Part shown: positions 19,325-38,772 of the stretch, one piece after another | Layout of the letters: every line of letters begins with the position of its first letter | Numbering within the stretch: the first letter of the stretch is position 1 | Source: a virus | Strand: one strand, 5' to 3' | DNA length: 50,113 nt | IMG/VR virus record: IMGVR_UViG_3300015164_000036 | Location: 1 to 50,113 of that record | Position numbers and translations under genes: made by a program | Notes under the pieces: generated by a model | What the model was told of the DNA's origin: nothing | The model's input: the letters and a program-made list of their open reading frames with translations, nothing else | Databases searched by the model: none

Positions 19325-19399
19325 GATGGCATCGACTGAATTCTCCGCCATGCCCTTCATAACCTCGACGCAATCACCGGTGATGATTTGAGCTTTCAC
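19325..19399 (-). pseudogene. N-terminal remnant of a DNA methyltransferase
   Basis: MKAQIITGDCVEVMKGMAEN followed by SVDAI is the start of an N4/N6 methyltransferase, where VTDPPY would be expected next. Instead the frame enters sequence antisense to the HNH gene. It is coupled by overlap to the complete methyltransferase upstream. With the remnant at 18448-18600 it defines a replaced central segment. Confidence 0.7.
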
Positions 19400-20163
19400 G
19401 CTACCTCCAGCGCCATCTGCTCATGCGCCTTCATCGGCTCCGGCGGGAATAGCACGGACTGCCGCTGCGCTCGCTCGATTCGTTCGCAAGCCAGTTGGAA
19501 GTAGCGTTCATCGATTTCGATGCCGATGAAGGCGCGACCGAGATTGGAACATGCGACACCAGTGGTTCCAACTCCCATAAACGGATCAAGCACAGACGTA
19601 ACGCCGATTTTCAACAGTTCTTCCATCAGCTTTACCGGCTTTTGGGCGGGGTGCGACACGGTGCCGTTCGTCTCTACGATCCGCTCCATAGCCATGCAGC
19701 CGGCCTGAAGGCGGGGTATGTCGATATGCGTTTTCAACTTGCGCCAATTCAATCCGGTTGCTTTACGAAACGCCCAGCAATATTCCGTCTGGAATTGCGG
19801 AGCCATCGCCGCGCTAGGCGCGGCATTGCGTTGATACCAACTAATCAGAGCCGTTGGTTTGCTAGGTATTGCTGCGCGGAGGTCAGCCACAAAATGAAAT
19901 GAGCAGAACGAAAAAAAAGCACGTTCTGCAAGATTCCATGCTGGCAATACCCACTCCAAATTTGCTCCCCAAGGATCGCCCACGGTGATACTTTCGTTGC
20001 GACGTTTGGCTACTCCACCACCGTCCGGAAAGCGAGTACCGCCTTCCATGTTCATATAAGGCGGGTCTGTAATAACTGCGTCAACCATTCGGAGCGACGG
20101 CATGATCTCAAGGCAATCGCCTAAATAGAGTTCCGCATTGCCGATCCTCACGACTTGGCTCAT
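19396..20163 (-). CDS. DNA methyltransferase, N4/N6 class (beta order)
   Basis: 255 residues. Motif IV AVITDPPYMNM near residues 31-41 and motif I VLDPFMGVGTTG near 190 give the beta-class order; SHPAQKPVKLMEELL is the usual lead-in to motif I. The C-terminus RIERAQRQSVLF with tail AHEQMALEVA is nearly shared with the methyltransferase at 11575. It overlaps the CII-like regulator upstream and the remnant downstream. Likely protective methylation. Confidence 0.85.
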   Translation of the reverse strand: MSQVVRIGNAELYLGDCLEIMPSLRMVDAVITDPPYMNMEGGTRFPDGGGVAKRRNESITVGDPWGANLEWVLPAWNLAERAFFSFCSFHFVADLRAAIPSKPTALISWYQRNAAPSAAMAPQFQTEYCWAFRKATGLNWRKLKTHIDIPRLQAGCMAMERIVETNGTVSHPAQKPVKLMEELLKIGVTSVLDPFMGVGTTGVACSNLGRAFIGIEIDERYFQLACERIERAQRQSVLFPPEPMKAHEQMALEVA

Positions 20164-20640: not shown

Positions 20641-21213
20641 TCATTCCGAATCCCATCCCGCCTTATGCAGACTGCCGCCATACTGCCGATAGATTGCAGC
20701 CCATACCTCTTTGCGCGGAACGAACACGCACTCGCTACGATAGCCACTGCCGCCACTGCGCGGTGTGAACTGCTGGCGGGTCTTGTAGTGCTTGCTCCAT
20801 GCTTGCCATTGCTGTTCGAAAACCTTACATAGCATCGGAAACGGCACTAAACAAAAGCGCTTGGTATCCGCCCATAGCCACAGCACGTAATCGCATTTCT
20901 TCGTGCTGTCGCGCGTCCATCCGACAATTCTTTTTTCCACCACAGACCACGTTTCCAGCGCCAGATCATCTTCGTTCGGATGGTCCGCAGCCCAGTCTTC
21001 TTCGCGCACCTTGGCATCAATCGACAGATGACGTGCGCTATTCATTTCAACCCACCAGTCGATCCCCTGCTTATCATTAGCCACAGCCGCCCTTGTGACG
21101 GATACAGCACCAGGTATCTGATCGAGCAGGATGGAGCGCACGTCGGCAACTGCTGCAACTCCAGAGGACATCGCCATGCGCTCATCAAAGCCATATGCAT
21201 GTTCACGCAGCAT
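20641..21213 (-). CDS. Putative PD-(D/E)XK-fold protein
   Basis: 190 residues. The segment GIDWWVEM followed by LSIDAKVREEDWA offers an Asp and a D-x-K motif as in the restriction-endonuclease-like fold, and a later helix-rich region contains KKCDYVLWLWAD. The start overlaps the ParB/MT-A70 gene end. A nuclease accessory role is inferred from the motif only. Confidence 0.5.
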   Translation of the reverse strand: MLREHAYGFDERMAMSSGVAAVADVRSILLDQIPGAVSVTRAAVANDKQGIDWWVEMNSARHLSIDAKVREEDWAADHPNEDDLALETWSVVEKRIVGWTRDSTKKCDYVLWLWADTKRFCLVPFPMLCKVFEQQWQAWSKHYKTRQQFTPRSGGSGYRSECVFVPRKEVWAAIYRQYGGSLHKAGWDSE

Positions 21214-22417
21214 TTGCTTCGGCGCCCCATGACTGCCATCCGGTACGTTCCGATCGTGCGAACATTTCCAGATATGGACCGGGACTGCACGACTCTACGA
21301 TAGGGTAGAACTCGACCGGCTTGGAACTATGGCCCATTGGCCCGCGCGGCGCCGCAAACCATGTTCCAACATCCTTGCGTCTCAATGGCTGCGATCCCCG
21401 CACACCAAATAACACGTGCTCCGTTGAACCGCGAAAATAGTTACCCATTCCGAAGGATGATTTACACCACGTCAGCGCGACTATGTAGCGAAAGCCCCAC
21501 CGCTCCATCAGGGCAAAGCCTTTTGGCAATGATCGGTTCGTGATCCACAGATAAAGATGGCAATCTATGTCTGCTAGTTTCGCCACCGGCAGATCAAGCA
21601 ACTGCTCGAATGTCATCGTGCCGTAGGTGGGCCGTGCCCTGCCGAGCTGATCTGAATCTCCTTCATCGCCCCAATCCCACGGCGGATCAATTACGATGGT
21701 GGCATAGCGCGCCTCCGTTCTGGCCGGACTCGGCGCGAGCGCAATCAGTTGTCTGTTCTCATCCCTGCGTTGTTCGCGGGTCGCTTCCTTTACCTCGCGC
21801 ATCGCTTGCGTGATGGTCTTGCTTCCGGCCTTTACTTCAGCCGCGAGTTTTGGGGCAGTGGCTTCTATCTTCTTGGCGTCTTGGACGTAGCGAGCGCCGA
21901 CGCCGACTTTTTCTGCTGCTCTTACACGGGCAAATCCTTGATCCGGTTTTCTTGCCGGAATGGTTTTGCGCTCCAAAGGCCAGATAGAAGCGGTTGTTAC
22001 TGGCGCGTCCGTGGGTAGCGGTTCGCTTTCCTGCGGTTCGACTACATTCTGTTCTGGCATTCTTGCCAGAACAGAATGTACAGGCTTGCGTAGTTGCCGT
22101 TCCTTCGCCAGCGCCGCCTCCACTTTCTCGATCTCCAACGCCACAAACGCCAACTGCCCCGCCGATAACTGCCGCCGCTTGAGATTCAGCGACAAGACAA
22201 ATTTCAGCGGGTCATCGCCTTCATATTCTCTGGTTGGACACGTCTTGCCTGCGTCCTGCGCCGCCCGCCATCGGTTGCGGCCATCTAGGATCAAGCCTTC
22301 GTGCAGCGTTATTGGTTCGCGCACGCCGTATTTGCGCACGTCCTCAATCAATTCATCGAACGCTGGCCCGTCTAGTAAGGGGAAGATGTTTGCAAGTGGG
22401 TGGAAGTTGATTTTCAT
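21203..22417 (-). CDS. ParB-like domain fused to MT-A70 adenine methyltransferase
   Basis: 404 residues. Residues 1-110 form a ParB/Srx-like N-terminal domain (VREPITLHEGLILDGRNRWRAA). A linker (113-235) includes a KorB-like helical part (VGVGARYVQDAKKIEATAPKLAAEVKAG). Residues 236-400 are MT-A70: DPPW at 244-247, then LYLWITNRSLPKGFALMERWGFRY and GSTEHVLFGVRG. Such fusions are found in phages and plasmids, with the ParB part probably supplying DNA contact and the catalytic part making N6-methyladenine. A 17-bp perfect inverted repeat lies in the coding linker. Confidence 0.85.
   Translation of the reverse strand: MKINFHPLANIFPLLDGPAFDELIEDVRKYGVREPITLHEGLILDGRNRWRAAQDAGKTCPTREYEGDDPLKFVLSLNLKRRQLSAGQLAFVALEIEKVEAALAKERQLRKPVHSVLARMPEQNVVEPQESEPLPTDAPVTTASIWPLERKTIPARKPDQGFARVRAAEKVGVGARYVQDAKKIEATAPKLAAEVKAGSKTITQAMREVKEATREQRRDENRQLIALAPSPARTEARYATIVIDPPWDWGDEGDSDQLGRARPTYGTMTFEQLLDLPVAKLADIDCHLYLWITNRSLPKGFALMERWGFRYIVALTWCKSSFGMGNYFRGSTEHVLFGVRGSQPLRRKDVGTWFAAPRGPMGHSSKPVEFYPIVESCSPGPYLEMFARSERTGWQSWGAEANAA
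22043..22080. repeat. 17-bp perfect inverted repeat inside the MT-A70 gene
   Basis: Arms TACATTCTGTTCTGGCA and TGCCAGAACAGAATGTA are separated by TTCT. It sits in the interdomain linker (codons 113-125), where insertion is tolerated. The length is far beyond chance for coding DNA and would form a stable hairpin or cruciform. Confidence 0.8.
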
Positions 22418-22999: not shown

Positions 23000-24103
23000 T
23001 TATGAAGAACTTTGACAGTCTGCATTTTGTGGTGAGCGGAAACCATATTTTCCCGCCGTCGCGAGGTATTCCAGGTTCGCGCTGGCATTGCGGTCGGCAT
23101 GATCGGCGTGCCCGCAATGAACGCATTTGAACCTGTCGCCCACGCGACTCCGCCTGTCCCATCTGAGGCAAGACCGGCATGTCTGCGAGGTTTTCCAAGG
23201 GTCTTTCCGTTCCAGCCGAATCCCCTGTTCCTCGCAAGCGCGCTCCAACCTTGCCTCACAGGCTCGATAGAGCCAATGGGACATGCGCCTATTCAACTGC
23301 CGGGAGAACGTCCCCCGTGTTCCATGTTTCACCCGCTTGAGATTCTCTATCGCGAGTGTCTTGATGTTGCCCCAATCGACCGTCTTCACGGCGTGGCCGA
23401 CCATGGAATCGACTTCGGCGAAGCTGTGCTTCTGCCGCCTGCCGAATTGCTGAACGCGGACATAAATGTGTTCGCCGACCTGCTGCCCATCGGAGAACAC
23501 GAAGCCCGCCTTGTAGTTGGAATCCATTCCGACGACGACGCCTTCCGTGCGCAGCGCGGGCCGATCCTTCTCGAACAGGAAGTCGATAAAGACCAGTCCA
23601 TCGCGCAGCCCAAGCCGCACTGTTCGCGATATGGCCCATCCGTGTTGCATCCGATCCAGCATCGGCTGCGTGGCGTGCACTGGCAACGTCATGCGTGGTG
23701 CGCCGGAGCCGATCAGATGTACCGCCCAGTCGAAACCGGCACCACGAAACGGCTCAATCTTGACGAAGTGGTAATACAGCGTCGCGGTGTGACTGCGCAG
23801 GGCGGGCTTATCCTTGCGCCCCTTCTTGTGTTGCGAGCGCACGCACTCCTTGGCTTGCTTTGCGAGCGATTGGGACAACCGCGTGGTGATCCCGAATCGC
23901 TTGACCGCCCGATGGACAGTCGGCAGATCGGCCAGCTTGCCGCCGAAGTCGAGCCGCTGCCAGAACAAATCTACAAAGTATTGCGTGACGGTGCGGCACT
24001 GATAAAGAAAATCCGTGATGACGACAACCTTTCCATGATTGAGGTCGTTCAGGAAAACCCGGCAGGAACGCACCATCTTCTTCTTGTTGCGCTGCGCTGC
24101 CAT
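23000..24103 (-). CDS. tnpB: TnpB RNA-guided nuclease (IS200/IS605 type), intact
   Basis: 367 residues. RuvC-I VVGMDSNYKAGF (Asp194), RuvC-II IKTLAIENLKRV (Glu253), zinc ribbon CRSC (309/312) and CVHC (327/330), and RuvC-III HADRNASANLE (Asp337). All three catalytic acids are present, so it should be an active omegaRNA-guided DNA nuclease. No tnpA is in the window. It interrupts the early operon between the Cro-like gene and the next minus genes; a 17-codon ORF coupled to the Cro-like stop is cut at its left side. TnpB normally helps its element persist by cutting element-free sites. Confidence 0.9.
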   Translation of the reverse strand: MAAQRNKKKMVRSCRVFLNDLNHGKVVVITDFLYQCRTVTQYFVDLFWQRLDFGGKLADLPTVHRAVKRFGITTRLSQSLAKQAKECVRSQHKKGRKDKPALRSHTATLYYHFVKIEPFRGAGFDWAVHLIGSGAPRMTLPVHATQPMLDRMQHGWAISRTVRLGLRDGLVFIDFLFEKDRPALRTEGVVVGMDSNYKAGFVFSDGQQVGEHIYVRVQQFGRRQKHSFAEVDSMVGHAVKTVDWGNIKTLAIENLKRVKHGTRGTFSRQLNRRMSHWLYRACEARLERACEEQGIRLERKDPWKTSQTCRSCLRWDRRSRVGDRFKCVHCGHADHADRNASANLEYLATAGKYGFRSPQNADCQSSS

Positions 24104-26364: not shown

Positions 26365-26628
26365 ATGCTTGCGCTTATCGCTCTCTCAGGCTTAGTGGCC
26401 TGCCTTTCATGGGGACGCTGGCGCTGGCGGCGCGGTTTTGCAAGTGCAAAGGAGATCGCCAGCTACGATGTTTTGTATTGGCGCGCCGAATGCGAACGGG
26501 TGCAGGCAATTTTGCATGACGTGCCTAGCGACATCGTGTCGCAAGCAATGTATGCAACAGTTTTGCCAGCAGTTAAACGAACCACGCCCGGCGAAGTCTC
26601 GGGCACAGAGGAGCATCACAATGTCTGA
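26365..26628 (+). CDS. Small membrane-anchored protein
   Basis: 87 residues from ATG 26365. The N-terminal hydrophobic helix LALIALSGLVACLSW is followed by WRWRRG and a helical tail. Overlaps the recT start by eight bases. Function unknown. Confidence 0.5.
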   Translation: MLALIALSGLVACLSWGRWRWRRGFASAKEIASYDVLYWRAECERVQAILHDVPSDIVSQAMYATVLPAVKRTTPGEVSGTEEHHNV

Positions 26629-27448
26629 CTCAGCACCCGTCGCAACCTTCGATCTTTCCCCAAAATCTCTCGACGAAGCCCTGCGCTTCGCCGACTACTT
26701 AGCCGAATCCGATCTCATCCCTAAGGATTTCAAGGGCAAGCCAGGTAATTGCCTCGTCGCAATACAATGGGGATTAGAGCTTGGCCTGAAGCCATTGCAG
26801 GCAATGCAGAACATCGCAGTTATCAACGGTCGCCCTGCCCTGTGGGGTGACGCAGTGCTCGCCCTCGTACTCGCCTCGCCAGCGTGCGAGTACGTTCACG
26901 AATCGGTCGAGAACGGCGTCGCAACGTGCCGCGTCAAGCGCCGGGGAGCGAAGGAACAGGTGCGCACGTTCTCCGACGCCGATGCGAAAATGGCCGGTCT
27001 GTCCGGCAAGCAAGGCCCGTGGGCGCAGTACCCACTCAGAATGCGGCAGATGCGCGCCCGTGCCTTTGCGTTGCGCGATGTGTTCGCCGACGTACTCAAG
27101 GGAATGCCGGTAGCCGAAGAAGTCATGGACACGCCGACCGAGATCGACATTACGCCGCGTGCGACACCGGCGCAAATCGGCGCTGCTGCAATGCCGGTAG
27201 CCAAGGACGCAGCAGACCGCACGGAAGAAATTAAAAAACTCGTAGCCGATCTCGAAGAAACGGCAAAGGAGGACGGATTGCATGGACTTGAGCGGCACTG
27301 GAAAAGCGTGCTTACAAAGCCGCAGCGCACTCTTGTCGGAGCCGTCGAATGGGCGCGGATCAAGGCGCTTGCAATAACGCCGGAACCTGAACCGCTTGGC
27401 GATGCCGAATCTGAGTTTGTCGCGGAAGTCAATAACCCCGACCTTTAG
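26621..27448 (+). CDS. recT: RecT-family single-strand annealing recombinase
   Basis: 275 residues from ATG 26621, preceded by GAGGAG. The N-terminus FDLSPKSLDEALRFADYLAESDLIPKDFKGKPGNCLVAIQWGLELGLKPLQAMQNIAVINGRPALWGDAVLAL is characteristic of the RecT-like annealing proteins of proteobacterial phages and mobile elements. The C-terminal tail is acidic and variable. It pairs functionally with the YqaJ exonuclease and SSB encoded downstream, but an iscB element separates it from the exonuclease gene. It should anneal resected strands during recombination. Confidence 0.85.
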   Translation: MSDSAPVATFDLSPKSLDEALRFADYLAESDLIPKDFKGKPGNCLVAIQWGLELGLKPLQAMQNIAVINGRPALWGDAVLALVLASPACEYVHESVENGVATCRVKRRGAKEQVRTFSDADAKMAGLSGKQGPWAQYPLRMRQMRARAFALRDVFADVLKGMPVAEEVMDTPTEIDITPRATPAQIGAAAMPVAKDAADRTEEIKKLVADLEETAKEDGLHGLERHWKSVLTKPQRTLVGAVEWARIKALAITPEPEPLGDAESEFVAEVNNPDL

Positions 27449-27479
27449 GCCGGCGCTTGCAAGTAATTTGTAAGTTTCA

Positions 27480-27717
27480 TTGACCAGAGAAAGTGGTATC
27501 CAATCCGCTACGTTAGTAACAGGTCGTCAAGACACACCAGCGAATGCTTCCTTAGTTCGCTGCACTGTAAGACAGGAATCATGCTGATCCAAGGTAAAAG
27601 GTCGAAGGTTTTTGTCGCCGCCATCAAAAGTGGGAGCCGGTTACGGACATTCTCGAAGGGAGACGCATCGCAAGGTGCGCGTTACCAGGCCCGTAAGGGC
27701 ATTTGAAAGGAAAGATC
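27480..27717 (+). ncRNA. IscB omegaRNA scaffold
   Basis: The 270 bases between recT and iscB contain features typical of IscB omegaRNAs. There is a GGGAGCCGGTTACGG segment, a GAAGGGAGACGCATCGCAAG hairpin zone, and a 3' end CCAGGCCCGTAAGGGCATT that runs into the iscB start. The guide is expected at the 5' side, so it would be encoded at about 27460-27495, near the recT stop. The exact left boundary is uncertain. Confidence 0.75.
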
Positions 27718-29091
27718 ATGGCCGTATTTGTTTTGGATCGAAGTGGAAACCCGCTGATGCCGTGTTCGGAAAAACGGGCGCGTCTGCTGCTGGAGCGTGG
27801 TCGTGCCCGCGTTCACCGGATCGTGCCGTTTGTCATTCGTCTTGCAGATCGCCTGGCAAATGACAGCGTATTCCAGTCGTTGCGCTTGAAACTCGATCCT
27901 GGCAGCAAGACCACGGGCATTGCCATAGTACGGGAAAAAAATGACGCAATCGCCGTACTGAATCTGTTTGAACTGGCGCATCGCGGCCAGCAGATTACCA
28001 AGGCGCTTACGGCACGGCGTCAGTTGCGTCGTGCCAGACGCGGCAGGAATTTGCGTCATCGTGCGCCTCGGTTCTTAAATCGCGGCAACAAGGAAAATGG
28101 CTGGCTGCCGCCATCTCTGACGCACCGTGTAGATACCACGATGTCATGGGTTCTAAAACTATCTAGGTGGGCGCCAATTTCAGCACTATCGACCGAACTG
28201 GTCAAGTTCGACATGCAACTGATGCAGAACCCGGCGATTTCAGGCGTCGAGTATCAGCAAGGTGAACGCGCCGGATACGAGGTGCGCGAATATCTGCTGG
28301 AAAAGTGGCATCGCCAGTGCGCCTATTGCGACAAGACAAATGTTCCTCTGCAAGTCGAGCATATCGACTCACGCGCCAATGGCGGCAGCAACCGGGTATC
28401 GAATCTGACGATGGCCTGCCAGAAGTGCAATCAAAAAAAAGGGGCGCGATCTATTATTAATTTTCTGGTACACGATCCGGCCAGGCTTGCCCACATCACG
28501 GCAAAAGCCGTGGTGCCGCTGCGCGATGCCGCTGCCGTCAACGCTACGCGCTGGCGATTGCTGGAATGTCTGAAGCACACAGGCCTATCCGTTGACACCG
28601 GAACCGGAGGACAAACCAAGTTCAACCGCAGCCGCCTTGGCATTCCGAAAACGCACGCTCTTGATGCGGTCTGTGTGGGTAATGTTACGGCGGTGGATAA
28701 CTGGATACGGCCCACGCTGTACATTAAATGTACAGGCAGGGGCAGTTACCAGCGCACCCGTGTCACCGCACAAGGATTCCCGCGCGGGTATCTTATGCGT
28801 ACAAAACAGGCCCACGGCTTTCAAACTGGAGACCATGTGAAAGCCGTTGTACCAAAAGGTAAAAATACCGGAATCCATATTGGTCGTGTGGCGGTACGGG
28901 CATCCGGCAATTTCAATATCACGACCAACATCGGTATCGTTTCTGATGTGGCACATCGACATTGCGCGCTGATCCAACGCAATGATGGCTATGCATATTT
29001 TCAACAACCAACTGCAAAGGCTGCTACATCTTCGATGTCGTCTCATTTCCGTCCAGACATGAATGGCGGAGTATCCAGGAGCGAATCGTGA
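27718..29091 (+). CDS. iscB: IscB RNA-guided nuclease (Cas9 ancestor family), intact
   Basis: 457 residues from ATG 27718 with AAAGGA upstream. PLMP domain (residues 12-33), RuvC-I LKLDPGSKTTG (Asp60), arginine-rich bridge helix (about 99-122), RuvC-II ISALSTELV (Glu160), HNH domain with CAYC (201-204), VEHID (His215) and ACQKCN (234-238), then RuvC-III KTHALDAV (His313, Asp316). All catalytic residues are present. The last 25 residues (after QRNDGYAYF) look like read-through into flanking DNA, and its TGA overlaps the GTG of the exonuclease gene. No transposase is adjacent. Confidence 0.95.
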   Translation: MAVFVLDRSGNPLMPCSEKRARLLLERGRARVHRIVPFVIRLADRLANDSVFQSLRLKLDPGSKTTGIAIVREKNDAIAVLNLFELAHRGQQITKALTARRQLRRARRGRNLRHRAPRFLNRGNKENGWLPPSLTHRVDTTMSWVLKLSRWAPISALSTELVKFDMQLMQNPAISGVEYQQGERAGYEVREYLLEKWHRQCAYCDKTNVPLQVEHIDSRANGGSNRVSNLTMACQKCNQKKGARSIINFLVHDPARLAHITAKAVVPLRDAAAVNATRWRLLECLKHTGLSVDTGTGGQTKFNRSRLGIPKTHALDAVCVGNVTAVDNWIRPTLYIKCTGRGSYQRTRVTAQGFPRGYLMRTKQAHGFQTGDHVKAVVPKGKNTGIHIGRVAVRASGNFNITTNIGIVSDVAHRHCALIQRNDGYAYFQQPTAKAATSSMSSHFRPDMNGGVSRSES

Positions 29092-29723
29092 GCGACGCCG
29101 CGCAAGGAAGCGACGCCTGGAAACTAGCCCGCGCCGGCCACGCCACGGCAAGCTGCTTCGAGGACATTCTCGCCGTCAGCAAGACGACCGGAAAGGCGCT
29201 CAAGGCCCGCGACGACTATATCTGGCGTGTCGCTACGGAGCGGCTTTATGGCGCTCCTATGGAAGGGCCGACAAGTCGCAGTCTCGAATGGGGCAGCGAA
29301 CTTGAGCCGTTCGCACGGGCCGCGTATGAGCTTGAGACCGGCGATGTCGTTGTGGAAAACGGATTTATCCTGCATCCTACGATTCCTTGGGTCGGCTGCT
29401 CGCTCGACGGCATGATCGGGACTGACGGCACCTACGAGTCGAAGTGCCCAAAAGATAGCGCAGTGCACATGCGGACTTGGGCTAATGGGATGCCTGAGGC
29501 CCATCGCGCTCAAATTTATGGCGGGTTATGGATTTCAGGAAGGCAGTTTTGTATGTTTTGTAGTTTCGACCCTCGGGCCACGCCTGAATTTCAGCTTTAT
29601 ATAGAACGGATCGAGCGCGACGACAAGTACATCGCGGAACTGTCCGAGAAAGTGCAGACGTTTTTGGCTGATGTGGGCGCAAAGGTTGCATTGCTGATGC
29701 GGTGCGCGAAGAAGGCGGCTTAA
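29088..29723 (+). CDS. YqaJ-family (lambda Exo-like) 5'-3' exonuclease
   Basis: 211 residues from GTG 29088, which overlaps the IscB stop and is preceded by AGGAG. LARAGHATASCFEDIL, EWGSELEPFARAAYELETGDVV, WVGCSLDGMIG and GTYESKCPK give the catalytic Glu-Asp-Glu-x-Lys of the YqaJ/alkaline exonuclease fold. It should resect double-stranded ends to feed the RecT-type annealing protein. Confidence 0.9.
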   Translation: MSDAAQGSDAWKLARAGHATASCFEDILAVSKTTGKALKARDDYIWRVATERLYGAPMEGPTSRSLEWGSELEPFARAAYELETGDVVVENGFILHPTIPWVGCSLDGMIGTDGTYESKCPKDSAVHMRTWANGMPEAHRAQIYGGLWISGRQFCMFCSFDPRATPEFQLYIERIERDDKYIAELSEKVQTFLADVGAKVALLMRCAKKAA

Positions 29724-29776: not shown

Positions 29777-30238
29777 TTGGCTTCGATCAATAAGGCAATC
29801 ATCGTCGGGAATATTGGCAAAGACCCGGAATCTCGTTTTCTGCCGGACGGAACAGCGGTGTGCAATATCACCGTAGCCACTACTGAAAAGTGGATCGACA
29901 AGGGCACTGGCGAACGCAAGGAAGCCGTCGAATGGCACCGTGTATCGATGTTTGGCAAAACGGCAGAGATCGCGGACAAATTTCTCTCCAAAGGCTCCTC
30001 CGTCTACATAGAAGGCAAGCTGCAAACGCGCAAGTGGCAAGGAAAGGACGGCCAGGATCACTACACGACGGAGATTCGGGCGGACACCATGCAGATGTTG
30101 AATAGTCCGGGAGGCCGGCCTGACGCAACTAAGCCACAAGCGGGAAGCGGAGCGCAGCAGCCGCATGGCACAACGCGGACGCCCGATCCAAAGACCGGTA
30201 GTTCTTTCGATGATCTTGATAGTGACATACCGTTCTAA
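29777..30238 (+). CDS. ssb: Single-stranded DNA-binding protein
   Basis: 153 residues from TTG 29777 with AAAGGA upstream. The N-terminal OB fold ([21 protein letters not shown], then [32 protein letters not shown]) is canonical SSB. The disordered linker ends in the acidic tip DDLDSDIPF, which in E. coli SSB recruits partner proteins. It completes the recT-exonuclease-ssb module and would also serve conjugative replication. Confidence 0.97.
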
Positions 30239-31689: not shown

Positions 31690-31704
31690 TATACTTGTGA
31701 ACAA
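31690..31704 (+). promoter_or_regulatory. parA promoter with palindromic start region
   Basis: The -10 TATACT is at 31690-31695; a possible -35 TTAGCA lies 18 bp upstream. The palindrome TTGTGAACAA (31695-31704) covers the transcription start and the first base of the ATG. The start codon lies where transcription should begin, so the mRNA is probably leaderless. Confidence 0.5.
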
Positions 31705-32390
31705 TGCAACTTTCCAACATTCGAACAATTGCCATTGTGAGCGAGAAGGGCGGAGCTGGCAAAACCACGCTCGCCGTCAATCTGGCGGTAATCGCCGAGA
31801 ATAGCGGGCGAGCTACGGTCGTGTTCGATCTCGATCCGCGCGCCAATGCAGCCATTTGGGGCGACGCGCGGGGCAGGTGTCCAGAGGTTGTGCCTGCGCA
31901 GGCTTCCAGGCTTTCTATGCTGCTACAGCAAGCGCAGAAAGCAAAGGCCGATCTGATTCTGCTCGACACGCCGAGCAACGCACTCCACATCGCACAGGTC
32001 GCCTGCGGACTCGCCGACCTGATCCTGATTCCGTGCCGCCCCTACCCGCCAGATTTGCTCTCGATCGTTCCGACAGTCAAGGTAGCGCTCGCGGCTGGCA
32101 TACCGACCTTCGTTCTGATTAACGCCGCTCCCGCACAGGGGATCGAAACAGCAGAGGCTACAGCCGCCATAGAGCGCGCTGGCGTAGCCGTTTGCCCGGT
32201 CATCCTGCATCAGCGCAAAGCCTTCGTGAGCCGGTTTCACGAGGGCATGAGCGCTACCGAAGTGGATTTTCGCTGCAAGGCCGCATTGGAGTTGGACGAG
32301 TTATGGGCTTGGGTGATAGACGCACTCGGTATTCTGCCAAAAGGCATTCCAGTGGTCACAAATCATAAAGATAACAACGCAACAACGTAG
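31704..32390 (+). CDS. parA: ParA-type plasmid partition ATPase
   Basis: 228 residues. The deviant Walker A SEKGGAGKTTLAVNLA (residues 13-28), Walker A' VVFDLDPRANA, and Walker B ADLILLDTPSN mark a small ParA (type Ib, without an N-terminal DNA-binding domain). It would form ATP-dependent patterns on the nucleoid to move plasmid copies. The next gene is an RHH protein, the usual type Ib partner; no ParB follows. Confidence 0.92.
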   Translation: MQLSNIRTIAIVSEKGGAGKTTLAVNLAVIAENSGRATVVFDLDPRANAAIWGDARGRCPEVVPAQASRLSMLLQQAQKAKADLILLDTPSNALHIAQVACGLADLILIPCRPYPPDLLSIVPTVKVALAAGIPTFVLINAAPAQGIETAEATAAIERAGVAVCPVILHQRKAFVSRFHEGMSATEVDFRCKAALELDELWAWVIDALGILPKGIPVVTNHKDNNATT

Positions 32391-32399
32391 GAATTAAAC

Positions 32400-32612
32400 A
32401 TGGCAACCAGAAAACCGCTTGAATTCGACATGAGCGCGCAGACTCCAACGCCTCGCAGGGTGCTGACCAACATAGACCGCCAGCATGTCGGCGCTCGCGT
32501 GCCGCGTGAGCAGTACCGACGGTTAAAGGCGCGCGCCGCGCTCGATGGGGTATCTGTGCAAACGCTGGTCGAGCAGGCTATCGATCAATTGCTAACTGGA
32601 GCCATCCCATGA
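32400..32612 (+). CDS. RHH centromere-binding partner of ParA
   Basis: 70 residues. The C-terminal 45 (GARVPREQYRRLKARAALDGVSVQTLVEQAIDQLL) form a ribbon-helix-helix domain; the N-terminal tail is flexible, as in ParG/Omega proteins. It would bind the partition site and repress the operon. The palindromes at 31389 and 31695 are candidate sites. Confidence 0.8.
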   Translation: MATRKPLEFDMSAQTPTPRRVLTNIDRQHVGARVPREQYRRLKARAALDGVSVQTLVEQAIDQLLTGAIP

Positions 32613-33115
32613 CGCTGAACGAATTTTTCGAATCTATCCTACCTGGCGACATAGACCAGGATTGCCGAAATACCCCAAATACAGCCGGTCTATATTTAAT
32701 AGTCAATACAGTGACTTGGAAGGCATACATCGGCCAGAGCCAAAGAATCGCAAGCCGGTTCCTGTCGCATCGCGGTGCACTGCGCGGGAATAAACATAGC
32801 AATCGTAGTTTGCAAGAGGATTGGAACAAGTACGGAGAAGCCATCTTTCGGTTTTGTGTCTTTGAAATCATGGACGCAAGTCTGCTGTTTGAAGCTGAAA
32901 TTCAGCTTATTTCGTCATCCGCAGGCTCGTGCTACAACCATTGCCCCGATATACCCAACAAACCCCGCCAAGTAAGGCTGTGTGGCAAGCCGACGATGAT
33001 CCGAATTCCTCCTGACCTGTTGACTCGAATTGACCAATGCGCCCGACGGTTTGGCCTTAGCCGCAGCGCCTTCCTTGTCCAGAGCGCGGCTGAGAAGATG
33101 GAGGGCCTACCATGA
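32609..33115 (+). CDS. GIY-YIG nuclease fused to a ribbon-helix-helix domain
   Basis: 168 residues, ATGA-coupled to the partition RHH gene. Residues 25-110 are GIY-YIG-like: AGLYLIVNTVTWKAYIGQSQ (GLY...YIG), an Arg after it, and DWNKYGEAIFRFCVFE with the typical W-K-G-F pattern. The catalytic Glu candidate is in FEAEIQLI. Residues 125-165 are RHH: MIRIPPDLLTRIDQCARRFGLSRSAFLVQ. Location inside the partition operon suggests a site-specific nuclease guided by an RHH reader, perhaps of the same site as the partition protein. Unusual architecture. Confidence 0.8.
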   Translation: MTLNEFFESILPGDIDQDCRNTPNTAGLYLIVNTVTWKAYIGQSQRIASRFLSHRGALRGNKHSNRSLQEDWNKYGEAIFRFCVFEIMDASLLFEAEIQLISSSAGSCYNHCPDIPNKPRQVRLCGKPTMIRIPPDLLTRIDQCARRFGLSRSAFLVQSAAEKMEGLP

Positions 33116-33303
33116 CGCCCACCAAGAGCAAAGACTGGCTCGAATGGCCCGGCGGCGAGTGTCCTGTGCCGCCGCTGACGCTCGTGAGCGTCCTATTCAG
33201 CACTGGCAAGGAAAGCTCTGGAAGCGCCAGCGCGCGAGCGTATAGATGGGATCGCATGAATTTAGGCGGCGATATTGTGGCGTACAGGGTTGAATCGAAA
33301 TGA
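33112..33303 (+). CDS. Small phage-type protein
   Basis: 63 residues. WPGGECPVPPLTLVSVLFSTGKES and a C-terminal WDRMNLGGDIVAYRV are a pattern common in short phage proteins. ATGA-coupled at both ends. Function unknown. Confidence 0.65.
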   Translation: MTPTKSKDWLEWPGGECPVPPLTLVSVLFSTGKESSGSASARAYRWDRMNLGGDIVAYRVESK

Positions 33304-33527
33304 CGAAATTGAGTCGAACCCAGCAGGATCTTCTCGACGCGATGAAGGCTGGCGTGGTAGTACATAGCATGCGTGGGAACTCCCGCAATTCAGCGTATTT
33401 CTTCAGCAACGACACCAGGAGGCCATGCACAGCAGCAGCATTTGCCTTGCGTGACAAGGGTCTCGCTCGTATCGATGGCGAGTGGAATAGTGCGCGCCTC
33501 GTGCTCATTGACAATCCGGCGACGTGA
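33300..33527 (+). CDS. Small winged-helix-like protein
   Basis: 75 residues. LSRTQQDLLDAMKAGVVVHS and AAAFALRDKGLARID resemble a winged helix with a turn rich in Ser and Asn. ATGA-coupled. Possibly a DNA-binding regulator. Confidence 0.55.
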   Translation: MTKLSRTQQDLLDAMKAGVVVHSMRGNSRNSAYFFSNDTRRPCTAAAFALRDKGLARIDGEWNSARLVLIDNPAT

Positions 33528-33537
33528 GGGGGCCGAA

Positions 33538-34083
33538 GTGAGCAAGAAGCAGATTAGTACGGCAGCGGGGCAGGCGGTCACAGATACTCGACAGCACCGG
33601 ATCGATCACGGACTTTGCCCGGAATGCGGGGAGGAAGCGGCCCCGTATTATCTCTGCGAACAGCATCGACGCAAAGCGTCCCTTGGCCGCATTCTGCGGT
33701 CGGCGGCAACGCGCGGCGTTCTCCGCATCAGCAAAAGAGGCGGCAGGAATTGGTATTCGGTGGATACAGGTTGCCGGCCAGCCTCCGACGTAAATTGGCC
33801 AGGAAAGACGATATTCGACATGAACGAGAACGACAAGCGCCTTCGTCCGCGTCTCGGGCGGCGTCCTGTCGATATAGACGAGACTTTGATCGGGATTTTT
33901 GTTGATTCTGGTCGCCCACTGCAATATGACGAAATCATATCTGCTTGGGGCCGACTCCGCTCCAAGAGGAAAACTGCGTCATTGGCTGGCGATATGACGG
34001 CGATCATAGAAGCGCAACGCAGACGTGCCGCGCGGAATGCAAAGCGCGCTCGTGATTCCAATGACAACCCGCCAACAAGATAA
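33538..34083 (+). CDS. Zinc-ribbon/helix-turn-helix protein upstream of repA
   Basis: 181 residues from GTG 33538 (G-rich ribosome site upstream). An N-terminal ribbon CPECGEEAAPYYLCEQH is followed by a helix-turn-helix-like stretch (ASLGRILRSAATRGVLRISKRGG) and a C-terminal domain RPVDIDETLIGIFVDSGRPLQYDEIISAWGRLRS. It overlaps the repA start. A replication-control role is possible by position only. Confidence 0.55.
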   Translation: MSKKQISTAAGQAVTDTRQHRIDHGLCPECGEEAAPYYLCEQHRRKASLGRILRSAATRGVLRISKRGGRNWYSVDTGCRPASDVNWPGKTIFDMNENDKRLRPRLGRRPVDIDETLIGIFVDSGRPLQYDEIISAWGRLRSKRKTASLAGDMTAIIEAQRRRAARNAKRARDSNDNPPTR

Positions 34084-34954
34084 GATTATCGACGCTGGCG
34101 TTTCAATCGCGCTAGACCGGCCGACCGACCAAGACAAGGCGTTTCTCGCTCGCCAATTGGTGCAGACCACGCTCCCCCACGCAGACCCAGGTAACGTGCC
34201 CGTCTGGAGCCGGAGCAACGGCAACCTTACCCTGACTATCCAACAGGGCTACGAGGACGACAGCAGCCCAATTGGGCACCCGTACGGCATTATCCCGCGC
34301 CTCCTACTCTACTGGCTCACCACCGAAGCCATCCGCACCAAAACGCCGCGCCTGGTGCTCGGAGATACGCTGGCAGCCTTCATGGACGGGCTTGGACTGG
34401 ATGATCGCGGCAAGGGGCCACGCAGCGACCGAGTACGGCTGGAGCAACAGATGCGCCGCCTATTCGCGGCTCGGATCAGTTTCAAAAGCCGGCTGGAGCA
34501 GGATGGCCATGTAGCCCAAGTCACGGCGTACATGCAGGTCGCCAAGCAAACCGTCTACTGGTGGAGTCCGGCGCCGGCACATCAATCAGCGCTTTGGCAG
34601 AGCTACGTCGAACTCGATACGGACTTTTTCGCGGCGATCACGGCTAACCCGGTGCCAGTCGATCTCAGGGCGCTCCGGGCTATCAAGCGGAGTCCGCTGG
34701 CGCTCGATTTGTACTCGTTGCTGACTTATCAGGCATTCCGGGCAGGGAAGGGCGGTCGGGCGAGATTTATGAGCTGGCGGCAGTTGCAGGCGGCGCTGGG
34801 GACGAGTTATGACCGAATCGACAATCTGCGGGCAGCGATCAAGCCTGCGCTGAAGAAGATTGTGGCGGTCTATCCTGGACTTGCTATCGGAGAACGCGAC
34901 GGCGGGATTGAGGTTTTGCCGGAGAGCTTGCCAGCTATTTCTTCGAAGTTCTGA
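34061..34954 (+). CDS. repA: Plasmid replication initiator, RepA_C family
   Basis: 297 residues from ATG 34061 (MTTRQQDKIIDAG matches the usual start; in-frame ATGs at 34025 and 34037 also exist). Typical segments: YGIIPRLLLYWLTTEAIRTKTPRLVLGDTLAAFMDGLGL, RLEQQMRRLFAARIS, NPVPVDLRALRAIKRSPLALDLYSLLTYQ and a C-terminal winged helix (MSWRQLQAALGTSYDRIDNLRAAI). It should bind the iterons just downstream and recruit DnaA and DnaB. Confidence 0.92.
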   Translation: MTTRQQDKIIDAGVSIALDRPTDQDKAFLARQLVQTTLPHADPGNVPVWSRSNGNLTLTIQQGYEDDSSPIGHPYGIIPRLLLYWLTTEAIRTKTPRLVLGDTLAAFMDGLGLDDRGKGPRSDRVRLEQQMRRLFAARISFKSRLEQDGHVAQVTAYMQVAKQTVYWWSPAPAHQSALWQSYVELDTDFFAAITANPVPVDLRALRAIKRSPLALDLYSLLTYQAFRAGKGGRARFMSWRQLQAALGTSYDRIDNLRAAIKPALKKIVAVYPGLAIGERDGGIEVLPESLPAISSKF

Positions 34955-34997
34955 AAACACAATATTCGAACATCCGCTTAACAGGCTTTCGAATATG

Positions 34998-35148
34998 TGG
35001 TGAAACGGTAGTTGGCGCCGAAACAAAGTTACCCACAATTTCTGTGGACAACCATACTTGTTACTGGTGAATAGGTAGTCCAGCCCTGTGGTGAATCGGT
35101 AGGGTATGCGTGGTGAAAGGGTAGGAGATGGTGTGGTGATTTGGTAGT
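34998..35148 (+). repeat. Five iterons, consensus TGGTGAAWNGGTAGK
   Basis: Copies at 34998-35012, 35065-35079, 35089-35103, 35111-35125 and 35134-35148. The last four are spaced 22-24 bp, about two helical turns, so RepA would bind one face of the helix. The first is 67 bp apart and may be the autoregulatory copy. Confidence 0.9.
35028..35051. promoter_or_regulatory. DnaA boxes (two)
   Basis: TTACCCACA at 35028-35036, and TTGTCCACA on the minus strand at 35043-35051, each one mismatch from TTATCCACA. A third, TTTTCCACA (minus strand, 35208-35216), lies at the far end of the origin. Confidence 0.7.
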
Positions 35149-35216
35149 CCATCATTACTATAGGTGTTGTAAAAGTAGTTAAAGCCTGTAGTAACAGCGC
35201 CGCTTTCTGTGGAAAA

Positions 35217-35420
35217 TTGACATCCCCCCAGCACTAAAGGACTGGGATTCCTACAGCTAGACGCGAATGCCCTCGCGCACGGATGTTGATGGCTGCATTT
35301 ATGTCTCGGTCGTGTACCGCTCCACACTCGCAGCATTCCCAATCCCGCTTATTCAGTCCTGCCAACCATTTCGGGCTGCTGGCGGGAATGACTCCGCAGC
35401 TTGCACAGGTCTGGGTTGTG
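35217..35420 (-). ncRNA. omegaRNA of the second tnpB (3' part)
   Basis: By analogy with IS605 elements, the RNA overlaps the tnpB 3' end and finishes at the hairpin near 35223-35243. The guide would follow on the minus strand at about 35200-35216, which is origin DNA including a DnaA box. The 5' limit is approximate. Confidence 0.6.
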
Positions 35421-36289
35421 TATCTTTCGTTGACTTCCTCAAACCATACAGCCGCGTTATCGCATTTGTACTGAAGCATGGTTCTAAAGGCACTCCAACC
35501 GGCGTCCAAGACGGATTTCGCCATCTTGGTTTTTGCAAGCTTGGAGGCGCTCACGTTGCCAACGAAGATCGCACCGTTCTGGCTGACCAGTCTGGTGCTG
35601 AGTTTGTGCAGGAAGTCTTTCCTGCGGTTCCCAATTTTTGCGTGAATGGTCTTCACGCGCCCCTTCTTGTTTGCGCGCTGCGCAATCGCCAGCGATTGTT
35701 CCGCGCCACGGTAGATGCGCTGCGCCTCGATCTTTTCACCCGTTGAGAAAGTAGCGAAATCCTTCAGTCCAAGGTCGATGCCGATAGAGGATGTGCCATC
35801 AGACTTCTGTTCCTCGACTTCGACGCAGAGATTGGCGTACCAACGGCCCCGAGCATCCTGACTGAAAGTTCCGGATCGCAGTTTGTAGTCGGCGAGGCCG
35901 TAGCTATCCCAAAGGCTGAAGAACTGCCCGACGTAGCGAAGTTGCCCATTCTTGTAGGTGACGGTGCCAGCCTTGAATGGAATCCAGCCAAGCGACTTAC
36001 GCGAACCACCAGAGACGCGCCAGCGCAACTTGGATTTTTTGAATTGCTTGCGGCGGGTGACGTATTCATCTGTGATGCCCTGCACGGTTTGACTATGCAC
36101 CTTCAAGCCCTCCTTGCACGCGCCAGTCGTGTACTTCTGGAGATCATAGGCGCTGAAGAATTGCCAAGTGCGCTGCGTGTGCGTGTGCGATAGTTCGTTC
36201 ACGAAATTCCACACCATATTGCACTCGCATGCCATTTCGTCGAGCGCCTTGGCATGTTTGTCTTTGATTCGGACGCGAAGGGTTTTCAA
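35234..36289 (-). CDS. tnpB: TnpB family protein with altered RuvC-II
   Basis: 351 residues from TTG 36289, overlapping the RHH gene stop (TTGA). RuvC-I SIGIDLGLKDFAT (Asp172) and RuvC-III HDRDINAAIN (Asp329) are intact, and the zinc ribbon is C295/C298 with C319/C322. The RuvC-II position reads IFVGNVSAS, with Gly244 where Glu is usual. Glutamates Glu284, Glu285 and Glu288 (FEEVNER) lie 40-44 residues later. Some TnpB and Fanzor lineages have a relocated catalytic Glu about 45 residues on, so the protein may still cut; otherwise it would be an RNA-guided binder. Confidence 0.9.
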   Translation of the reverse strand: MKTLRVRIKDKHAKALDEMACECNMVWNFVNELSHTHTQRTWQFFSAYDLQKYTTGACKEGLKVHSQTVQGITDEYVTRRKQFKKSKLRWRVSGGSRKSLGWIPFKAGTVTYKNGQLRYVGQFFSLWDSYGLADYKLRSGTFSQDARGRWYANLCVEVEEQKSDGTSSIGIDLGLKDFATFSTGEKIEAQRIYRGAEQSLAIAQRANKKGRVKTIHAKIGNRRKDFLHKLSTRLVSQNGAIFVGNVSASKLAKTKMAKSVLDAGWSAFRTMLQYKCDNAAVWFEEVNERYTTQTCASCGVIPASSPKWLAGLNKRDWECCECGAVHDRDINAAINIRARGHSRLAVGIPVL

Positions 36290-36417
36290 TTTTGCTTCTT
36301 CAAGAACTCAGCAATGGCGTGGCGAATCAGTTCTGCCACCGACAAATCAGTTTTTTGCGAAAGAGATTTGAGGGCTTCAACCACCGGCTCAGGCAGAAAT
36401 ACGTGTGTGCGTTTCAT
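36286..36417 (-). CDS. 43-residue ribbon-helix-helix protein coupled to tnpB
   Basis: Starts at ATG 36417. The strand KRTHVFLPEPVVEALKSLS and helices DLSVAELIRHAIAEFLKK form a minimal RHH domain. Its TGA overlaps the tnpB TTG (TTGA), so translation of tnpB depends on it. It probably represses the element's own promoter at the left end, near the GGTTTTTAACC hairpin. Confidence 0.75.
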   Translation of the reverse strand: MKRTHVFLPEPVVEALKSLSQKTDLSVAELIRHAIAEFLKKQN

Positions 36418-36476
36418 ACACACACTATATCAGGTTTTTAACCGAAAGGCAACCGCAACGACAAGTCGTGACGCGA

Positions 36477-36983
36477 TCAACCAAGCCCCGCAAACACTAT
36501 CGCCCGCGCACCGTCCACATCCCGATGGTCGGCGAAGGCGAATTGCACCGCATGATCGCTGGCTCTCCGTGTTTTGTCGACTTCATCGCCGAATTTCGAT
36601 GTGACGTAGGCGCGCATCGCGGATATTAGCGCCGTCTGGCCAGCGATCCTGATGCTGTCCCATCCGTTATCCGTGCGAATCATCCCGATCCAGGGCGATC
36701 CTGGCGACCACCCGCCAGGCGCGTAGTTGTAGTCCAGTTCAATGCGCTCCCTCTCGATAATTGGTCCTCCGATAGCCCAATCTCTGCTGTAGCGCTTGAT
36801 ATTCGCGCTCCACTCGCCGTCCGGACACATCGTTACAGAACCCAGCGTCTCTTGACCAGGAATTGCGAGCGGATAGAGTATGTATCCGACGGTCGTCTGC
36901 GGCCAAGGTTTCCCGAACCGATAGCCCTCGCACATGGCCACCGCAGCATCTAGTTCCGCGCCTTCCAATTCGCAAACCTTCAT
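36477..36983 (-). CDS. DUF2591-like phage protein
   Basis: 168 residues from ATG 36983 with G-rich ribosome site; ORF extension to 37058 is rejected. MKVCELEGAELDAAVAMCEG, then YSRDWAIGGPIIERERIELDYN, then ISAMRAYVTSKFGDEV match the DUF2591 pattern. The tail after KFGDEV is longer than usual. Function unknown; typical of accessory phage genes. Confidence 0.75.
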   Translation of the reverse strand: MKVCELEGAELDAAVAMCEGYRFGKPWPQTTVGYILYPLAIPGQETLGSVTMCPDGEWSANIKRYSRDWAIGGPIIERERIELDYNYAPGGWSPGSPWIGMIRTDNGWDSIRIAGQTALISAMRAYVTSKFGDEVDKTRRASDHAVQFAFADHRDVDGARAIVFAGLG

Positions 36984-36984
36984 C

Positions 36985-37086
36985 TCATCCCCCAAAAGCC
37001 CAAGTCGCCACCCACAACACCGCCGCGCCCGCACAGCCGAGGACGAACGTGATGGCAACGGCGAGCTTAAATTGCAGGGGCTGCAT
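36985..37086 (-). CDS. Tiny membrane protein
   Basis: 33 residues, TGATG overlap with the upstream stop. LAVAITFVLGCAGAAVLWVATWAF is a single hydrophobic helix. Function unknown. Confidence 0.55.
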   Translation of the reverse strand: MQPLQFKLAVAITFVLGCAGAAVLWVATWAFGG

Positions 37087-37337
37087 CATCCTTCGATCCT
37101 CTTGAGTAGTTCTCGGGCGCGTGCGCGAAAGCGGCTGTCTACATCGTCCAGATCAACGTAGATGCGCAACGTCTCCACCAGCGCATCCGAGTAATTGACC
37201 GCGCGGACAAGCAGTGCCGCGTGATCGCGATCAGCCCAAACCACGTCATCGCCGGCTGCATCGATTATCAAGACCTCCTGCTCGTCGGCGTACATTGGCG
37301 AAATCGACCATGGGAGGTTTAATGGCTCGTCTGTCAT
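37086..37337 (-). CDS. Small phage-type protein
   Basis: 83 residues from ATG 37337; an upstream in-frame start at 37370 is possible. LPWSISPMYADEQEVLIIDAAGDDVVWADRDHAALLVRAVNYSDALVETL follows the layout of short phage proteins with the (H/D)AxLIVRAVN pattern. Function unknown. Confidence 0.6.
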   Translation of the reverse strand: MTDEPLNLPWSISPMYADEQEVLIIDAAGDDVVWADRDHAALLVRAVNYSDALVETLRIYVDLDDVDSRFRARARELLKRIEG

Positions 37338-37403
37338 AAACGTGTCTAAAATTGCCGGTTTTCTATACACGTCGCTGAAACGTATTTAGTTTTTGAACGT
37401 TTC

Positions 37404-37664
37404 CTACGCCTTCCGCCAGTCCCTGTATTCCAGCGTCCAATGCGCATTTTCCCCACGGTCGGTCCATTCCAGGTTGTTGGAGAAACGCACATATTCTCGC
37501 CACACCGCAATTTCCTCTCCGAGCCATAGCAAGGTTAGGCGATACTCGTTCCACTTGTAGTTGATGTGCGTCTCGCGGCCCTCAATGGTATCTCCAACCT
37601 GAATCCCCATTTCGCGGCATTGCGCGGCAGTCGAGAGACCTGCGCTCGGCTTTGGTAGCTTCAT
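37404..37664 (-). CDS. Conserved small phage protein
   Basis: 86 residues from ATG 37664. LSTAAQCREMGIQVGDTIEGRE and the ending WTLEYRDWRKA form a conserved pattern in phage early genes. The start overlaps the restored reading frame of the upstream gene (ATGA). Function unknown. Confidence 0.65.
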   Translation of the reverse strand: MKLPKPSAGLSTAAQCREMGIQVGDTIEGRETHINYKWNEYRLTLLWLGEEIAVWREYVRFSNNLEWTDRGENAHWTLEYRDWRKA

Positions 37665-37872
37665 GACCGCACCAGCCACCCATGCGGCCAATAAGAGATT
37701 TTATTCGACTTGCGCAATTTCTCAACCGACGGTCAATGACGATGTATGAAGTGTCCATTCCTTCGAGTGCATCGCACAGAGCTTTGAATGTTCTGCTACC
37801 AGCCTGTATATGCGCCAGGATCGCGGCGTCGAGGTCGGAGTCGTCTTTCCTTGTTCGTGCCATGCTGCTCAC
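37660..37872 (-). pseudogene. Winged-helix protein with a frameshift
   Basis: The N-terminal part (RKDDSDLDAAILAHIQAGSRTFKALCDALEG, then YIVIDRRL) is a winged-helix domain. In the current frame the end becomes an unrelated tail running to 37582. One base away the frame reads EKLRKSNKISYWPHGWLVRS and then a stop that overlaps the next start (ATGA at 37661-37664), as expected for the family. A one-base deletion near 37716-37727, or a sequencing error, explains this. Confidence 0.65.
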
Positions 37873-38129
37873 AGCTCCGGCATAGTAAGAATGTGCTCTT
37901 CGCCCATTTCGCGCAATTTGGCCTGATCGATTTCCGGTTCATTGACCATTTGCATCAAGGATTGCGCCTTCAGCATCCAGCGTGATCGCGTGACTATATG
38001 GTTCTTCAGTGCATCCAGCGCCTCTCCCGTGCTGATCTGGCGTTCATCGACCACTTGCCCAGTCGCAATATCGCCTACGAACTTGGCGAGCGCCATAGGA
38101 TCGTGCGGACGCTTTATTTGCGGTTTCAT
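37869..38129 (-). CDS. Conserved small phage protein
   Basis: 86 residues. MKPQIKRPHDPMALAKFVGDIATGQ is a start I recognise from phage proteins; helical remainder. ATGA-coupled upstream. Function unknown. Confidence 0.6.
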   Translation of the reverse strand: MKPQIKRPHDPMALAKFVGDIATGQVVDERQISTGEALDALKNHIVTRSRWMLKAQSLMQMVNEPEIDQAKLREMGEEHILTMPEL

Positions 38130-38770: not shown

Positions 38771-38772
38771 TT

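What the first reader, a model, noticed from the sequence alone, without database searches (positions are those of the whole stretch)
27449..29091. Intact IscB with its omegaRNA inside a recT-exonuclease operon
All RuvC and HNH catalytic residues are present, and the 240-270 bases in front read like an IscB omegaRNA. It sits exactly between recT and the YqaJ exonuclease gene and ends in a stop/start overlap with the exonuclease, so the operon could stay joined. Intact IscBs on phage-like plasmid operons are not commonly described. Its guide would be taken from DNA at the recT end, so it could target uninterrupted recombination operons of related elements.
Basis: partly seen in the sequence, partly recalled or inferred. 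Interest (0 to 1): 0.78.

Follow-up and report, generated by a model that had tools for sequence, protein, structure and literature searches.

The report
IscB element at a start codon
A small mobile element carrying an RNA-guided DNA-cutting enzyme (a relative of the ancestor of Cas9) has landed exactly in front of the start codon of an exonuclease gene on a phage-like plasmid; the element itself is of a known kind, but its relatives also tend to land exactly in front of gene start codons, which seems to be a general rule worth testing.

Summary
Window 27718-29091 encodes a full-length IscB (NCBIfam IscB, 443 bits; all RuvC and HNH catalytic residues align), preceded by a full-length HEARO/omega RNA (Rfam RF02033, 97 bits, 27428-27668), between a RecT-like gene and a YqaJ exonuclease gene. 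The boundaries need correcting. Comparison with 29 related elements puts the element at 27428-29087 (1,660 bp): the omega RNA starts 21 nt inside recT, supplying recT's last six codons and stop. The right tip ends directly before GTGA, the start codon of yqaJ plus one base; that GTGA also completes IscB's stop codon. The 16-nt guide would be 27412-27427, within recT. The operon stays joined, and the tip carries a Shine-Dalgarno-like AGGAG that none of the 29 relatives' tips has. The guide matches no sampled uninterrupted recT-yqaJ junction (at least 7 of 16 mismatches in 34), so targeting of related operons is unsupported; retention or drive at its own site is likelier (inferred). It is a new member of a known kind. 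The surprise is family-wide: relatives insert exactly in front of gene start codons (18 of 28 distinct sites, 9 of 14 in an independent set, against 8% of background ATGA).

The parts
26621..27448 (+). RecT-like ssDNA-annealing protein gene (275 aa); its last six codons (VNNPDL) and stop, 27428-27448, are omega RNA sequence
   Evidence: PHROG 561 E 1.1e-56; HEARO starts at 27428; no Pfam or NCBIfam match at 0.001
27412..27427 (+). presumed 16-nt guide segment of the omega RNA, lying inside the recT coding sequence
   Evidence: DNA directly 5' of the HEARO model start; guide position and length by analogy with OgeuIscB (16 nt, passage of PMC13180657)
27428..29087 (+). whole IscB/HEARO element, 1,660 bp, no transposase gene inside
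   Evidence: left end fixed by HEARO start and by relatives; right end by tip profile and shared IscB tail; no Y1 transposase in the window
27428..27668 (+). omega RNA (HEARO RF02033) scaffold
   Evidence: 97 bits, E 9.5e-19; 37 of 66 predicted pairs show two-sided changes in an alignment of 21 sequences
27718..29091 (+). iscB, 457 aa; its stop codon TGA is supplied by the target site GTGA
   Evidence: NF040563 442.9 bits; PDB relatives TbaIscB, HfmIscB, OgeuIscB
29049..29069 (+). [quoted passage not shown]
   Evidence: profile of 29 right tips matches 29056-29076, E 0.0048 in the 300-nt scan
29077..29081 (+). Shine-Dalgarno-like AGGAG in the element's right tip, 6 nt before the yqaJ start
   Evidence: read from sequence; none of the 29 relatives' tips has such a motif
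29088..29091 (+). GTGA: presumed target-adjacent motif, start codon of yqaJ plus A, and IscB stop
   Evidence: tip profile predicts the end at 29087; RTGA position as in relatives
29088..29723 (+). YqaJ-like exonuclease gene (211 aa)
   Evidence: Pfam PF09588 E 2e-20, PHROG 149 E 7.7e-34
29777..30238 (+). single-strand binding protein gene of the same recombination block
   Evidence: Pfam SSB E 3.9e-37

Best explanation
An IscB/HEARO (OMEGA) mobile element of 1,660 bp (27428-29087) inserted directly before the start codon of yqaJ in a recT-yqaJ recombination operon of a MobF-type mobilizable, phage-like plasmid. Shown by sequence: element ends, full-length IscB with its catalytic residues, structured omega RNA, insertion at RTGA, preserved operon with stop/start overlap. 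Inferred: the operon transcript gives an omega RNA whose 5' guide (27412-27427) matches the pre-insertion site, with RTGA (the yqaJ start codon) as target-adjacent motif; the IscB RNP cuts plasmid copies that lack the element, so that the element is copied back or copies lacking it are lost, as shown for TnpB on plasmids. The element must be moved by machinery in trans, since it carries no transposase. IscB translation runs into the target's own GTGA and the tip holds an SD-like AGGAG, so yqaJ should stay translated.
For: HEARO 97 bits; IscB 443 bits; catalytic residues aligned. Left end: DNA homology to other plasmids' IscB elements starts at window 27426-27428 and relatives begin GTCAACTACC. 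Right end: tip profile E 0.0048 in the last 300 nt, with spacing that puts the end at 29087; IscB tail MNGGVSR matches the read-through tails MNGRVSR (L194) and LKGGVSR (L184). Sister insertion shown against a 96%-identical uninterrupted allele, split exactly before the smpB ATGA. ATGA and NTGA are experimentally used target motifs of the related IsrB (passages of PMC9581776). TnpB acts as gene drive in plasmids (abstract of PMC11870625).
Against: No expression or cleavage data. The motif at this site is GTGA; 29 of 29 hand-anchored and 17 of 17 automatically placed relatives have ATGA (the first set was anchored on ATGA by hand). Joining 27427 to 29088 leaves recT in frame with yqaJ without a stop (344 open codons upstream), unlike the 34 uninterrupted junctions; a later 1-nt indel in the recT tail would explain it but is not shown. 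The window's right-end hairpin is weak, so the copy may no longer move. Current targets of the guide were not found.
Confidence: 0.8

Rival explanations
1. Same element but inserted 29 nt further upstream: right end 29058, motif ATGA at 29059, so that IscB's last ten codons and the AGGAG are the old recT tail with yqaJ's native ribosome-binding site.
For: Joined flanks then read recT ...VAE-MNGGVSRSES* ending in GTGA, in frame; the AGGAGCRA context resembles native SDs of uninterrupted loci.
Against: The frame fit has a one-in-three chance. The tail is element-encoded in relatives (MNGRVSR, LKGGVSR), the tip profile match 29056-29076 spans the supposed junction, and the distance from the DGYAY motif to the end would be 60 nt against 77-116 in 26 relatives (89 nt under the preferred reading).
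Confidence: 0.06
2. A relic: IscB and omega RNA are intact by sequence but the element no longer moves or cuts, and persists because it does not break the operon.
For: Right-end hairpin has diverged; no transposase in the window; no current target found.
Against: A 457-aa frame with all catalytic residues and a full-length omega RNA with kept pairs is not what neutral decay gives.
Confidence: 0.12
3. Plasmid-serving weapon: IscB sits in a recombination operon to cut rival plasmids or phages with an uninterrupted recT-yqaJ junction.
For: Same operon as recT, exonuclease and SSB; guide is recT-derived.
Against: Guide has 7-13 mismatches of 16 to 34 of 34 uninterrupted junctions; no exact match in IMG/VR; relatives insert at unrelated housekeeping genes, so the neighbourhood is not special.
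Confidence: 0.05

Closest known systems
IscB / HEARO (OMEGA) elements with Rfam RF02033 omega RNA
   Same: PLMP, RuvC, bridge helix, HNH protein; 5' omega RNA with guide taken from left flank; motif at right flank; no transposase inside
   Different: This copy's omega RNA overlaps the upstream coding sequence; its stop codon is made by the target; its tip holds an SD-like AGGAG
IscB elements of Marinobacter, Contendobacter and conjugative plasmids (L165-L198)
   Same: GTCAA left end, about 1.69 kb, RTGA at right, mostly at gene starts
   Different: Right hairpin strong in most of those and weak here; ATGA there and GTGA here; best relatives are 57-66% identical in protein
IsrB nickases (DtIsrB)
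   Same: omega RNA-guided, NTGA/ATGA target motif (passages of PMC9581776)
   Different: IsrB lacks the HNH domain, which is present here
TnpB of IS200/IS605 on plasmids
   Same: Guide copied from the insertion site; gene drive against plasmid copies without the element (abstract of PMC11870625)
   Different: Different protein and RNA; guide taken from the other end of the element (recalled)

Membership tests
IscB | PLMP, RuvC split by bridge helix, and HNH in one protein of about 400-550 aa | tested here: met
   NF040563 over residues 3-321, RRXRR and HNH in Pfam; PLMP at 12
IscB | RuvC and HNH catalytic residues | tested here: met
   D60, E160, H215, H313, D316 aligned to OgeuIscB (residues)
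IscB | adjacent HEARO/omega RNA | tested here: met
   RF02033 97 bits, full length
IscB | mobile element with defined ends and flanking target motif | tested here: met
IscB | RNA-guided dsDNA cleavage | not testable with these tools
   needs biochemistry
IS200/IS605 autonomous transposon | own Y1 (HUH) transposase | tested here: not met
   PF01797: 0 matches in the window
CRISPR-Cas9 (type II-D) | Cas9 model score and size | tested here: not met
   Cas9d model 36 bits against cut-off 375; 457 aa
CRISPR-Cas9 (type II-D) | CRISPR array nearby | not tested
   no repeat search was run

The most novel reading that the evidence does not exclude
In this clade the target motif is in effect the start codon: IscB/HEARO elements insert exactly between a gene's ribosome-binding site and its RTGA start, so the guide RNA is copied from the ribosome-binding site region and the motif is the start codon plus A. 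Any gene start then resembles a target, the insertion leaves both neighbouring reading frames whole, and some elements borrow their IscB stop codon from the target's RTGA, giving automatic stop/start coupling to the downstream gene. In the window copy the tip shows an SD-like AGGAG, as if it had evolved into a replacement ribosome-binding site for yqaJ.
Probability: 0.6. Interest if true: 0.68.

Novelty: new member of a known kind. Interest (0 to 1): 0.5.

Why it matters
The window gives a clean example of an RNA-guided nuclease element living inside a phage-type recombination operon without breaking it. The wider pattern would matter more: if HEARO/IscB elements are targeted to (or survive only at) start codons, this explains how Cas9-ancestor elements spread through housekeeping genes such as smpB, lon, HU and metH, and predicts their guides and targets from genome sequence. 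It also raises a testable question: how are genes translated once their ribosome-binding site is moved 1.7 kb away?

Tried and rejected
Right end at 29058 (ATGA): first favoured because the joined recT frame looked perfect (notes), then rejected on the tip profile and the shared IscB tail.

Search for the uninterrupted allele: GTCGCGGAAATGAAYGG gave 19 IMG/VR stretches, none with recT, IscB, YqaJ or SSB relatives (built on the rejected boundary); GAGTTTGTCGCGGAARTGA gave none. A scan of held loci and the window (3.2 Mb, both strands counted) gave one guide match with 3 mismatches and six with 4, next to RTGA, taken as chance.

Literature: the listings showed no paper whose title or abstract start described start-codon insertion of IscB/HEARO; passages of four papers (PMC9755519, PMC13180657, PMC9581776, PMC9640706) and the abstract and outline of one (PMC11870625) were read; supplements and subscription papers were not covered. 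From memory only: Weinberg et al. 2009 reported HEARO integration upstream of ATGA or GTGA; that paper and a review were not held, so the motif itself is probably known.

Not done: structure prediction, RNA model building, dN/dS (no close relative of this copy was found), promoter scan, repeat search.

Full report
1. What is there. The frame 27718-29091 is an IscB by NCBIfam (442.9 bits; cut-off 175), Pfam (RRXRR, HNH) and solved relatives (TbaIscB, HfmIscB, OgeuIscB). The residues aligned to OgeuIscB D61, E193, H247, H340 and D343 (list from passages of PMC9640706) are D60, E160, H215, H313 and D316. Rfam's HEARO model matches 27428-27668 over its full length at 97 bits. In an alignment of this RNA with 20 relatives, 37 of 66 predicted pairs have at least one sequence with both sides changed and the pair kept. 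The RecT-like gene ends at 27448, so the RNA overlaps it by 21 nt.

2. Ends of the element. DNA homology to plasmid IscB elements starts at window 27426-27428. Copies in Marinobacter with unrelated flanks begin GTCAACTACC and end directly before ATGA. From 37 candidate places (loci L165-L198, L002, L003, with two elements in L168) 29 had two definable ends; 8 were dropped: three had no IscB match (L167, L170, L177), one had a broken frame and no clear end (L174), three ran off contigs (L179, L185, L186) and one had an ambiguous end (L188). Lengths are 1,604-1,791 bp, and 1,413 in one shortened copy. A profile of the 29 right tips finds window 29056-29076 as its best match in 28901-29200 (E 0.0048) and its third best in the whole window; its spacing places the end at 29087, directly before GTGA. 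In five relatives (L184, L189, L192, L194, L197) whose IscB frame reads through the tip the tail has the same ...VSR form: MNGRVSRAI, LKGGVSRGKS, GLKAGVSRAN, GLKADVSRAN and LKDSVSRAQ against MNGGVSRSES here. The element is therefore 27428-29087. An earlier choice of 29058 is withdrawn.

3. Insertion shown. For the sister element in front of smpB, one of 41 genus genomes (G035) carries the site uninterrupted at 96% identity over all 300 nt, while G006 and G013 carry it split exactly between base 120 and the ATGA. There is no target duplication or loss. For the window, 35 loci besides the window's own hold recT and yqaJ relatives close together; 34 junctions were compared (L101 dropped, partial recT). 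In 32 of the 34 recT overlaps the yqaJ start; L024 and L031 have about 190 nt between. yqaJ starts with ATG in 34 of 34 and with ATGA in 26. The window's GTG may thus have been ATG when the element arrived (inference).

4. Effect on the operon. The insertion gives recT a new C-terminus (VNNPDL) from the omega RNA's first stem and separates yqaJ from its old upstream sequence. IscB has no stop of its own: TGA comes from the target's GTGA, so IscB and yqaJ overlap by 4 nt. In 8 of the 29 relatives the IscB stop is likewise made by, or shares its last base with, the target ATGA (L181, L184, L189, L190, L192, L194, L197, L002). The tip contains AGGAG (29077-29081) 6 nt before GTG; none of the 29 relatives' tips has AGGAG, GGAGG, GGAG, AGGA or GAGG. 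An awkward point: without the element, recT would run in frame into yqaJ with no stop, unlike the compared junctions. A small indel in the recT tail after insertion would account for it, but I cannot show one.

5. Guide. By analogy with known IscBs the guide is the 16 nt 5' of the scaffold, 27412-27427, all inside recT. It differs from the corresponding 16 nt at 7-13 positions in 34 of 34 uninterrupted junctions and guide plus RTGA (a 19-mer) is not found exactly in IMG/VR. So the copy records its own insertion site; wider targeting of related operons is not supported. TnpB, which records its site in the same way, drives insertion sequences through plasmid populations (abstract of PMC11870625); I transfer that role to this IscB by analogy. 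The related IsrB uses NTGA/TTGA and cuts at ATGA (passages of PMC9581776).

6. A family rule. In 26 of 29 relatives the ATG of the right-hand ATGA opens a frame of at least 90 codons, against 342 of 1,365 background ATGA (25%) in 240 kb from four of these genomes. A stricter test on joined flanks (also no more than 40 open codons upstream) gives 19 of 29 against 113 of 1,365 (8.3%), binomial 2.4e-14; two of the 29 (L193, L196) share one site, giving 18 of 28. I anchored these ends by hand on ATGA, so I repeated the test with ends placed by the tip profile: of 22 further loci, 18 had a usable tip, 17 of the 18 had RTGA (all ATGA) within 3 nt of the predicted end, and after removing three sites seen before, 10 of 14 opened at least 90 codons and 9 of 14 passed the strict test, binomial 2.5e-7. 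Of 17 downstream proteins scanned (ten, seven; two were scanned twice, so 15 distinct), profile matches begin near the N-terminus (residues 1-15) for SmpB, GalE, CheB, PdxA, MetH, HU, TcdA, ThiG, a short-chain dehydrogenase, a glycosyltransferase and a kinase-pyrophosphorylase; in the PanE-like, Lon-like, NrfD and FAD-dependent proteins the match begins later (residues 112, 41, 43 and 284) and says less about the start. On annotated plasmids the next CDS starts exactly at the ATGA in 5 of 8 (L192, L193, L194, L196, L197), one codon upstream in L191, and not in L195 or L198. IscB-less copies of 362-394 bp follow the pattern too, but less strictly. Limits: background from four genomes, simple ORF criteria, related genomes not fully independent, and survival after random insertion is not separated from targeting. 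SD-like motifs in the guide region (15 of 29, loose motif) are what any gene start would show.

7. Known or new. The element is a HEARO/IscB of a clade found on plasmids and chromosomes (52 of 72,556 plasmid records at E<=1e-40; 18 of 50,697 phage records at E<=1e-5; 14 loci in one genome-contig scan). PMC9755519 (passages) reports that over 16% of HEARO-encoding fragments look viral and that transposases are rarely adjacent. The ATGA/GTGA motif was, as I recall, noted in 2009 (not held). The start-codon reading was not seen in the listings, which is weak evidence that it is unpublished.

8. Setting. The window is an IMG/VR record with a MobF relaxase (59% identity to TrwC-like relaxases), a TraD-like coupling protein and a ParA-like ATPase, hence a mobilizable, phage-like plasmid. 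No Y1 transposase occurs in it; six of the other nine genomes or records searched have one that could act in trans.

Noticed in passing
L235-L240, L242-L244: IscB-less mini-elements of 362-394 bp: an omega RNA joined directly to the right-end hairpin, several copies per genome, some directly before gene starts (pdxA, thiG, metH, HU); apparently mobilized in trans.
   Followed up: partly
29 relatives (L165-L198, L002, L003) and 14 further sites: IscB/HEARO insertions lie directly before gene start codons far more often than background ATGA.
   Followed up: partly
window 23000-24103 (-) and 35234-36289 (-): Two further TnpB/Cas12f-like genes in the same 50 kb; the second reads GNVSASKL where TnpB RuvC-II normally has its glutamate (motif position recalled), so it may lack nuclease activity.
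   Followed up: no
window 27428-27448: The omega RNA's first stem is translated as the recT C-terminus, and the guide lies wholly in recT, so recT translation and omega RNA folding could compete.
   Followed up: no
L192 (Polaromonas pPNAP01): An IscB element sits exactly between traD and a DUF4400 gene of a conjugation operon; the plasmid has three IscB places.
   Followed up: partly
window 31704-48117: ParA-like ATPase, TraD-like coupling protein and MobF relaxase on a record classed as viral; a mobilizable plasmid or phage-plasmid rather than a plain phage.
   Followed up: partly
window 15508-16560, 19396-20163, 21203-22417 (-): Methyltransferase genes: a dcm-like match, an MT-A70 match, and a DPPY-containing frame judged by eye.
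   Followed up: no
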